Source: Candidatus Bathyarchaeota archaeon (GTDB lineage: Archaea; Thermoproteota; Bathyarchaeia; Bathyarchaeales; UBA233). From it: a stretch of DNA of 5,406 nucleotides. The notes under the pieces were generated by a model. It did no database searches. It was not told where the DNA came from and saw nothing but the letters and a program-made list of their open reading frames with translations. The position numbers and the translations under genes were made by a program. The DNA lies in assembly GCA_004376975.1 (NCBI GenBank), contig SOJA01000210.1:1-5406 (forward strand). The letters run 5' to 3'. The first letter of the stretch is position 1. Each line of letters begins with the position of its first letter. Below, one piece after another: positions 3,522 through 5,406 of this stretch.

Positions 3522-4646
3522 TTAGAATGGTTTAAAGCGTTCCTTGAGTCTTTCCAGAATCTTTGGTAGAGTTGTGTATTCCATCTCTTCAATGCCTAAA
3601 CGCGCAGGTTCAAATTCACCCATACGCCTAAGTAGAGAAGCATATTCCATAGTTTCACGTCTAGCCATATCAAAAGCTGGATCAGCGAACAAATCAGCCA
3701 CCATAGGTTTTCCACTATCATCGCATGCAATGTTGCCGTTTGAAACTTGAAAGCTTAATGCAACAATCCTTGGAGGACCATCAAAAACAGTGCATTTCGC
3801 GTCTTTCACACTGACAGGCATTAGTGGACCCCAATGGCTTCCACGCATCCACCCTGCAACCAGATAACTGTGCATGAAGGGAACAAGAATCTCGCCTAAA
3901 GCTGGTAGCCCATGCTGCGCACGCACAATAAGTACAGGATCATCTTTTCCAACGTATTTGCCAGCAATTCTTGAAAGTTTGGTTACACTGCCAACAGCAC
4001 ATATCAAGTCGTCTCTAGCCCTCCAAACACGCGAAACCATATATCGTCCCACAGTTCCAATGAGCCCAACTAGCTCATACACTTCTTCAGGACATTTCAG
4101 AACAACAGCCTTGTTTTCTACAGTATCCAGCACCTCAAATTTGAAGCCGCCACCCATATCCGGGTCGATTACTAGTCCAGCAGTATTCATCGGATCAGCA
4201 AATATGCGAAACAGTGGGAGATTGAAAGCTCCAGCAGAGGTTTTGTCCGCTGCAAAAACAACAATTGGGTCAGAACCTCTTTCCTCAATTTCCATTTCAG
4301 CCACTCCTGGACCCATGCCCCTAACGTTTCCGCTGAAAGCTGTTTTCAAAAGGTCTTGCCCAGCACCATAGAGCTTTAGTTCTAAAGCCTTTTTTGCAGC
4401 TTCCTGGAATGTGTCCCAAGCAAGCTTATGAATCTCCGAGTTTGACTTGCCTCTTCCGTGAATCATAAGAAGCTGCAGATCATCTCCAACATTGAAAACA
4501 TGGTAGCTGTTGATTAATCCTTCTTCTTTTGCCTTCTTCAGATTTTTCTCTGCAACGTTAAACAATGGTTCTGGAACAACATGATGCCCTCCCAGAGAAC
4601 CAACATCACATTTGATCAGGGAAATCGTGGTTTTTCTCAGCATCAT
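3522..4646 (-). CDS. fbp: Fructose-1,6-bisphosphate aldolase/phosphatase (FBPAP, class V FBPase)
   Basis: This 374-residue bifunctional gluconeogenic enzyme condenses glyceraldehyde 3-phosphate and dihydroxyacetone phosphate, then dephosphorylates the product irreversibly to fructose 6-phosphate. It is a cytosolic, Mg-dependent oligomer in characterised archaea. The family's active-site residues appear present: CDVGSLGGHH gives Asp14 and His21, then GDD (Asp55, Asp56), Gln97, AADK (Asp134, Lys135), YVGKDDP (Tyr231, Lys234 for the Schiff base, Asp235, Asp236), Gln244 and a C-terminal Tyr (probably Tyr357). The sequence is full length and uninterrupted. Two ATGs lie in tandem (4646 and 4643). 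GTGAT at 4653-4649 is better spaced for the second, whereas the TATA-like box at 4668-4675 would start transcription near 4646, so leaderless initiation is also possible. The divergent neighbour is a DNA-binding protein, a candidate regulator. Identification is very secure. Confidence 0.97.
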   Translation of the reverse strand: MMLRKTTISLIKCDVGSLGGHHVVPEPLFNVAEKNLKKAKEEGLINSYHVFNVGDDLQLLMIHGRGKSNSEIHKLAWDTFQEAAKKALELKLYGAGQDLLKTAFSGNVRGMGPGVAEMEIEERGSDPIVVFAADKTSAGAFNLPLFRIFADPMNTAGLVIDPDMGGGFKFEVLDTVENKAVVLKCPEEVYELVGLIGTVGRYMVSRVWRARDDLICAVGSVTKLSRIAGKYVGKDDPVLIVRAQHGLPALGEILVPFMHSYLVAGWMRGSHWGPLMPVSVKDAKCTVFDGPPRIVALSFQVSNGNIACDDSGKPMVADLFADPAFDMARRETMEYASLLRRMGEFEPARLGIEEMEYTTLPKILERLKERFKPF

Positions 4647-4697: not shown

Positions 4698-4767
4698 ATT
4701 TCCTGAAGAAAAGTGAAGAAAACATGAAATAACTAGTAACTGATATTAGAGCAGTGTGGGAAGATTC

Positions 4768-5268
4768 ATGGAGAAGTTGCGGGTTATATCAGTGAAAATA
4801 CCGGATGAAGTCTACAAAGAAATGATTTTGCGTGTTCCTGAAGGAGAAAGAAGCCGTTTCATTCGAGATGCAATATTGGAGAAGCTGCGAAAGACACCGA
4901 AGCCGGATAAGATTCTGGAGCTGGAAGGAAGACTTGGCAAAATGGAAAAAGAGTTTGCACAAATAAGGAAATATCTTGCAGACTTAGAATTGCTCACGTA
5001 TGAACGTGGAAAAACAGACCCGCACATGTTTTGCATGGATGAAATAGATCATAAAGTAATAAATTACCTCATTCATTACAAAGGCGCAACTACGCCGGAA
5101 CTGGCAGAATACCTCAAAACAAACAGGTGGCTAATATTGAACAGACTGAGAAAAATACAGAAAAAATCAAGAACCCAGCTTGGAAAATCCATAATAGATT
5201 ATTATTCCGGAGAAAAATCAGGAAAAAAACGGGCATGGTGGATCAACGAAGAACTAATCGAAATATAG
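4768..5268 (+). CDS. Transcription regulator with RHH, coiled coil and winged-helix domains
   Basis: The protein has 166 residues from the ATG at 4768. Residues 3-42 form a ribbon-helix-helix domain: strand RVISVKIP, helix DEVYKEMILRV, then the turn and second helix ERSRFIRDAILEKL. Residues about 47-77 are a charged heptad-like coiled coil (ILELEGRL, MEKEFAQI). Residues about 89-166 look like a winged-helix domain: DEIDHKVINYLIHYKG, the recognition region TTPELAEYLKTNRWLILNRL, then a basic wing ending KKRAWWINEELI. RHH proteins bind DNA as dimers, so the coil probably sets the dimer and the second domain offers a further DNA or protein contact. A GTG at 4756 would add four residues; ATG is preferred because GGGA lies six bases upstream and the RHH strand begins directly after it. 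The gene is divergent from the FBP enzyme and upstream of a tRNA. The target is unknown; control of the neighbouring promoter or of itself is inference. Confidence 0.82.
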   Translation: MEKLRVISVKIPDEVYKEMILRVPEGERSRFIRDAILEKLRKTPKPDKILELEGRLGKMEKEFAQIRKYLADLELLTYERGKTDPHMFCMDEIDHKVINYLIHYKGATTPELAEYLKTNRWLILNRLRKIQKKSRTQLGKSIIDYYSGEKSGKKRAWWINEELIEI

Positions 5269-5286: not shown

Positions 5287-5341
5287 CTAGGCATCCATAA
5301 CTCTATTTTGGGCCCGTAGCCTAGTATGGATCAAGGCGCCG

Positions 5342-5362
5342 AATCACAGAATGGATGCGCAA
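5342..5362 (+). other. Non-canonical tRNA intron at position 29/30 (21 bases)
   Basis: A splice motif is visible. The 4-bp helix GCGC (5336-5339) pairs with GCGC (5357-5360). The 5' bulge CGA (5340-5342) is cut after G5341. The inner helix ATC (5343-5345) pairs GAT (5354-5356). The 3' bulge AAG (5361-5363) is cut after A5362. The outer helix is weak, so it is an HBh' rather than full hBHBh' motif, as is common for introns outside the anticodon loop. Confidence 0.8.
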
Positions 5363-5370
5363 GCCTCCGG

Positions 5371-5385
5371 GCTTCAACGAGAGAA
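5371..5385 (+). other. Canonical-position tRNA intron at 37/38 (15 bases)
   Basis: The intron follows G37 (5370) and precedes A38 (5386). Predicted bulges are G36-G37 plus the first intron base, and AAA (5384-5386), both cut after the second base. The 4-bp helix between 5365-5368 and 5380-5383 has three good pairs and one C-A mismatch, and the inner helix is minimal. The motif is relaxed, but the position and the restored 7-base loop support it. Confidence 0.75.
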
Positions 5386-5406
5386 AGCCGGAGAACAGGG
5401 GTTCAA

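What the first reader, a model, noticed from the sequence alone, without database searches (positions are those of the whole stretch)
5310..5406. tRNA-Arg(CCG) gene split by two short introns in one anticodon arm
Unspliced, the region does not fold as a tRNA past the D arm. Removing 21 bases at 29/30 and 15 bases at 37/38 restores a perfect anticodon stem and a 7-base loop with CCG. The middle exon is only 8 bases (5363-5370), carrying positions 30-37. Such a tiny central exon could easily be missed or given the wrong anticodon by automated tRNA prediction.
Basis: partly seen in the sequence, partly recalled or inferred. Interest (0 to 1): 0.75.

Follow-up and report, generated by a model that had tools for sequence, protein, structure and literature searches.

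The report
Arginine tRNA gene with two introns
This is the front part of an arginine tRNA gene of a Bathyarchaeia-type archaeon, interrupted by two short introns around an eight-base middle exon; introns like these are already known in archaea, and this one belongs to a series of relatives that carry both, one or neither of the two.

Summary
Window 5310-5406 is the 5' part (tRNA positions 1-58) of a tRNA-Arg(CCG) gene with a 21-base intron at 29/30 (5342-5362), a 15-base intron at 37/38 (5371-5385) and an 8-base exon between them. The window end cuts off the 3' part. In 19 relatives with the gene in the same place it is complete: 7 have both introns, 5 only 37/38, 5 only 29/30, 2 neither. Relatives lacking one intron give the exact empty sites, fixing both junctions and the anticodon. 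The 29/30 intron pairs with the 5' exon in 70-71 of 71 distinct genes per central position, with compensatory changes, including exon/intron covariation at base 26. The 37/38 motif is relaxed: 40 of 46 genes form 3 of 4 central pairs. Relatives carry splicing-endonuclease genes (16 of 16 genomes) and RtcB (15 of 16). No intron-free tRNA-Arg(CCG) was found in 14 genomes with the two-intron gene, many of them partial. Multi-intron archaeal tRNAs and 29/30 introns are known, so this is a new member of a known kind. Splicing is inferred, not shown.

The parts
5310..5341 (+). Exon 1 of tRNA-Arg(CCG): positions 1-29 (acceptor 5' strand 5310-5316, D stem 5319-5322/5334-5337, base 26 at 5338, positions 27-29 CCG at 5339-5341)
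   Evidence: sequence; compared with 19 relatives in the same place
5342..5362 (+). Intron 1 (21 bases) at 29/30. Splice-motif pairing: 5336-5339 (positions 24-27) with 5357-5360, inner helix 5343-5345 with 5354-5356
   Evidence: absent as a block in intron-1-free relatives; window pairing; pairing and covariation over 71 distinct genes of relatives
5363..5370 (+). Exon 2 (8 bases, GCCTCCGG): positions 30-37 with anticodon CCG at 5367-5369
   Evidence: GCCTCCGG in 36 and GCCTCCGA in 2 of 38 distinct two-intron genes
5371..5385 (+). Intron 2 (15 bases) at 37/38. Relaxed splice motif: 5365-5367 pair with 5381-5383, C5368 opposite A5380 unpaired, inner pair 5372-5379
   Evidence: absent as a block in intron-2-free relatives; window pairing
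5386..5406 (+). Exon 3, 5' part: positions 38-58 (anticodon stem 3' strand 5387-5391, variable loop 5392-5396, T stem 5' strand 5397-5401, TTCAA 5402-5406); cut by the window end
   Evidence: completed in relatives

Best explanation
A functional tRNA-Arg(CCG) gene, probably the only one for this anticodon, of a Bathyarchaeia-type archaeon with two introns. The precursor is transcribed whole. At 29/30 the end of intron 1 (GCGCAA) pairs with exon bases 24-27 to form the central helix of a bulge-helix-bulge-type site. At 37/38 the purine-rich end of intron 2 pairs with positions 32-35 to form a relaxed site with one mismatch. A two-subunit splicing endonuclease cuts the four junctions and RtcB joins the three exons, giving a mature loop CUCCGGA that reads CGG codons. 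Shown here: gene structure, empty sites, covariation for intron 1, presence of the enzyme genes in relatives. Inferred: transcription, cleavage, ligation, charging with arginine, order of splicing.
For: Nineteen relatives with the tRNA upstream of the FBP aldolase/phosphatase gene show all four intron states with intact exons. Wider set: 127 distinct complete genes, window not included; for CCG 38 have both introns, 27 only 29/30, 8 only 37/38, 15 none; for TCG 33 none, 6 only 29/30. Intron-1 central helix: 71, 71, 71 and 70 of 71 paired, with 8 genes changed on both sides at exon base 26 and its intron partner; inner helix 69, 67, 69 and 55 of 71, each above the maximum of 2000 shuffles (64, 60, 55, 43); sliding by one base drops the central helix to 0 of 71. 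Mature stem pair 27:43 is C-G 65, U-A 9, U-G 5 in 79 intron-bearing genes. Endonuclease family PF01974 in 16 of 16 genomes, two genes in 12; one type keeps EHAP[YF]MV (8 of 8 read), the other has TAKY at that place (5 of 5 read), as expected for catalytic and structural subunits (residue roles recalled). RtcB in 15 of 16, in G004 only as fragments. No intron-free Arg(CCG) in 14 genomes with the two-intron gene.
Against: No RNA evidence. The window's copy is truncated and its genome is not held, so its own 3' half and other Arg tRNAs are unseen. In the closest genome G001 the only endonuclease gene found is the type lacking the histidine motif, and G002's single match has a score like that type. 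Intron 2's central helix is imperfect in 40 of 46 genes, and its inner helix hardly covaries: i3:i-8 pairs in 30 of 41 against a shuffle maximum of 31, i4:i-9 in 22 of 41 against 25 (introns over 12 bases). Most central-helix positions of intron 1 are nearly invariant, so base 26 alone carries covariation there. Predicted minimum-energy folds of the window stretch and of L001 and L003 contain a competing exon hairpin, positions 32-37 with 40-45. The intron-1 site has a weak outer helix and competes with the D stem.
Confidence: 0.95

Rival explanations
1. The same tRNA but with other splice junctions at the second site, giving anticodon CCA, CGA or AGA, or another base at 37 or 38.
For: Six arms with a perfect stem can be made from the window alone.
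Against: Relatives without intron 2 read GCCTCCGGAGCCGG, fixing 37/38 and CCG; exon 2 is GCCTCCGG in 36 and GCCTCCGA in 2 of 38 two-intron genes (the parser asked for GCCTYCGR).
Confidence: 0.02
2. A decayed or dead tRNA copy with random insertions; a working Arg(CCG) lies elsewhere.
For: The window genome is not held, so another copy cannot be excluded. One relative, G137, has two two-intron CCG genes besides a TCG gene.
Against: Exons are conserved while introns vary in length and sequence but keep pairing; no intron-free Arg(CCG) in 14 genomes with the two-intron gene.
Confidence: 0.02
3. A piece of a split tRNA whose true 3' half is encoded elsewhere and joined in trans.
For: The window ends inside the T loop. 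Splits at 29/30 and 37/38 are described in Caldivirga (PMC4090602 section 4).
Against: All 19 relatives with the gene in the same place continue directly into T arm and acceptor 3' strand, and the window already holds positions 38-58 in line.
Confidence: 0.01

Closest known systems
Multi-intron tRNA genes of Thermoproteales (e.g. Pyrobaculum), up to three introns per gene
   Same: Canonical 37/38 intron combined with non-canonical ones, bulge-helix-bulge or relaxed sites (PMC4090602 section 4; PMC8450103 passages; PMC4033280 passages).
   Different: Different class of archaea. The example named there (Pro-UGG, P. islandicum) has introns at 25/26, 56/57 and the canonical site, not 29/30 plus 37/38; whether that exact pair is in the Sugahara lists was not seen.
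Introns or splits at 29/30
   Same: 29/30 is a listed insertion point, and Caldivirga tRNA-Ala genes are split there (PMC4090602 section 4).
   Different: Here it is a cis intron, paired with a second intron eight bases downstream.
Asgard (Atabeyarchaeia, Freyarchaeia) tRNAs with multiple introns
   Same: Over half of tRNA genes have multiple introns, often non-canonical; some introns missed by tRNAscan were found by structure (PMC11291895 passages).
   Different: Different lineage; no syntenic intron-state series in the passages seen.
Caldiarchaeum tRNA-Thr(GGU) one-intron and two-intron forms
   Same: One gene seen with one or two introns in close relatives (PMC3293823 passages).
   Different: There the gain is linked to a mobile-element insertion; no such element was looked for here.

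Membership tests
Archaeal intron-containing tRNA gene | Exons join to a complete cloverleaf tRNA | tested here: met
   Window joins through position 58 only; complete in all 19 relatives read in the same place
Archaeal intron-containing tRNA gene | Junctions match intron-free homologues | tested here: met
   Each intron absent as a block in some relatives
Archaeal intron-containing tRNA gene | Bulge-helix-bulge site at 29/30 with 4-bp central helix | tested here: met
   70-71 of 71 paired per position, covariation at base 26 and in the inner helix; outer helix weak
Archaeal intron-containing tRNA gene | Bulge-helix-bulge site at 37/38 | tested here: inconclusive
   Relaxed: 3 of 4 central pairs in 40 of 46, 4 of 4 in 6 of 46; inner helix weak
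Archaeal intron-containing tRNA gene | Host has splicing endonuclease and RtcB | tested here: met
   In relatives only: 16 of 16 and 15 of 16; the histidine-motif type was not found in G001
Archaeal intron-containing tRNA gene | Introns removed in the cell | not testable with these tools
   No RNA data
Split (trans-spliced) tRNA | Exons encoded at separate loci | tested here: not met
   Exons contiguous in the window up to its end and throughout in 19 relatives

The most novel reading that the evidence does not exclude
The introns help keep tRNA-Arg(CCG) apart from its paralogue tRNA-Arg(TCG). At this locus both intron-free relatives (L008, L024) read TCG instead of CCG, as if loss of introns went with overwriting by the paralogue. 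Intron 2 would also hold a trace of the past: its commonest end, GGAAGAA (21 of 46), pairs fully with a UCG but not a CCG anticodon. Against it stand 15 distinct intron-free CCG genes elsewhere.
Probability: 0.06. Interest if true: 0.6.

Novelty: new member of a known kind. Interest (0 to 1): 0.3.

Why it matters
It adds a natural series with built-in controls to the known set of archaeal tRNA introns: one gene in one place with both, either or neither intron, suited to study of intron gain and loss. It also shows a practical risk: ARAGORN misses or misnames this tRNA, so an apparent absence of Arg(CCG) in such genomes should not be trusted.

Tried and rejected
Rfam search of the window gave one match far below its cut-off. 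Folding the window stretch alone is uninformative. The idea that intron 2 always holds exactly one A opposite C34 or C35 (24 of 25 genes, window included) weakened in the larger set: 36 of 46; 4 have T opposite 33, and 6 are fully paired. The idea that intron loss goes with anticodon change is contradicted by 15 distinct intron-free CCG genes.

Literature: among the rows listed I saw no paper on tRNA introns of Bathyarchaeota or Bathyarchaeia; several of these lists were cut (one search showed 10 of 106, 15 of 22). One search found one paper with both terms, which names the phylum only in a footnote. PMC12918454 (passages) treats rRNA circularisation by endonuclease and RtcB in archaea including Bathyarchaeia; the passages shown do not treat tRNA introns. 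Only open-licence papers are held; Sugahara 2008 and Fujishima 2010 were seen only as citations.

Rows left out: 10 fetched loci did not fit the parser (L082, L083, L093, L128, L157, L166, L170, L183, L193, L199); some are of the same kind, e.g. L170 has both introns and L093 is a TCG gene with a 37/38 intron. I did not fetch 4 of the matches (G089:C35, G166, G176, G191), nor the further genes that only one search shows. One search lists 10 TCG genes with a 29/30 intron and one TCG gene (G223) with a 37/38 intron, so the TCG counts are low. cannot see introns over 30 bases, and some of its rows are chance hits (e.g. G142:C8, G163:C78, G226:C110, G247:C88). The parsers require an intact T arm and acceptor end, so decayed copies would be missed.

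Full report
What is there. Window 5310-5406 reads as tRNA positions 1-58 once 5342-5362 (21 bases) and 5371-5385 (15 bases) are taken out; 5363-5370 is an 8-base middle exon with anticodon CCG. The window ends in the T loop. The neighbours are an FBP aldolase/phosphatase (3522-4646), a family 4 glycosyltransferase (1409-2695) and a DUF2095 protein (339-683). The best genome matches are named Candidatus Bathyarchaeota.

Is it more than chance? Removing up to two introns in every way gives 6 perfect-stem arms, all with the same first intron; 2.7% of 300 shuffles give any. The window alone leaves the second junction, and so the anticodon, open.

Relatives settle it. The FBPase protein fetched 80 genome loci. 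In 19 of them blastn found the tRNA beside that gene, and all 19, read in full, complete the T arm and acceptor stem. Seven have both introns (L001-L005, L013, L029), five only 37/38 (L007, L011, L020, L028, L050), five only 29/30 (L006, L009, L010, L012, L031), two none (L008, L024, with anticodon TCG). The empty sites match the proposed junctions. The other 61 loci were not read for this gene; two near relatives among them (L025, L030) showed no hit in the rows listed.

Survey. A 5'-half pattern hit 102 of 256 genomes of the class and a gapped pattern 96 of 256. From loci held, 127 distinct complete genes were parsed: CCG with both introns 38, only 29/30 27, only 37/38 8, none 15; TCG none 33, only 29/30 6. 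At least one (L055) is from outside Bathyarchaeia. Rows left out are told under Tried and rejected. These are distinct sequences, not independent events.

Splice sites. For the 29/30 intron, exon bases 24-27 pair with intron bases -3 to -6 in 71, 71, 71 and 70 of 71 genes, and the next four intron pairs in 69, 67, 69 and 55 of 71. Those four inner pairs and the pair at base 26 exceed all 2000 shuffles; bases 24, 25 and 27 are too constant to be tested. At base 26 eight genes changed both exon and intron side. Sliding by one base gives 0 of 71 in the central helix; sliding by two gives much pairing again because GCGC repeats. For the 37/38 intron, 40 of 46 genes pair at three of four central positions and 6 at all four; the inner helix is short and scarcely covaries. 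Central-helix mismatches at experimentally determined sites are reported for S. tokodaii (PMC4307357 passages).

Machinery. Endonuclease genes: 16 of 16 genomes, two in 12, one in 4. One type keeps a histidine motif (8 of 8 read); the other has threonine there (5 of 5 read). This fits a two-subunit enzyme; the residue roles are recalled. In G001, the closest relative, only the second type was found. RtcB: 15 of 16, in G004 only fragments, none in G003.

Only copy? In 14 chosen genomes with the two-intron gene, a search for intron-free Arg(YCG) with up to 3 mismatches found TCG and other anticodons but no intron-free CCG; G003 and G154 gave no match at all. Many of these genomes are small (from 0.5 Mb) and so probably partial.

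Prediction tools. ARAGORN without introns of 38 two-intron genes; with introns 2 right, 28 wrong, 8 none. It is right for all 48 intron-free genes.

History. On a tree of 22 relatives' FBPase proteins plus the window, the least number of changes is 4 for the 29/30 intron, 3 for 37/38 and 2 for the anticodon, over the 20 rows with a known state. Each intron thus came or went more than once; several branches are weak and direction is not shown.

Known or new. Multiple introns, 29/30 introns and relaxed sites are all described. This is a new member, in a class for which I saw no report of tRNA introns in the listings.

Noticed in passing
L107 and L129 (genome G078): Arg(CCG) and Arg(TCG) genes 2.8 kb apart carry an identical 27-base 29/30 intron, suggesting gene conversion or recent duplication.
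   Followed up: partly
L008 1368-1443; L024 3168-3243; L094: At the FBPase locus the tRNA is intron-free and TCG. L008 has the GTGGG T stem commonest among TCG genes (18 of 39). In G016 the CCG gene (L094, intron-free) sits elsewhere, as if the two anticodons had swapped places.
   Followed up: partly
37/38 introns of 46 distinct CCG genes: The commonest intron end GGAAGAA (21 of 46) leaves C34 opposite A; it would pair fully with a UCG anticodon.
   Followed up: partly
L150, L152, L151 (genome G137): One genome has two different two-intron CCG genes and an intron-free TCG gene.
   Followed up: no
L182: A two-intron gene with introns of 37 and 41 bases, the longest total among the 38.
   Followed up: no
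window 4756-5268 (+): 170-aa protein just upstream of the tRNA, inside the DNA stretch that aligns with several relatives, with no NCBIfam or Pfam match at E 0.001.
   Followed up: no
L010, L011: ARAGORN names these one-intron genes tRNA-Asp(atc) and tRNA-Gly(tcc), false calls that could enter annotations.
   Followed up: yes
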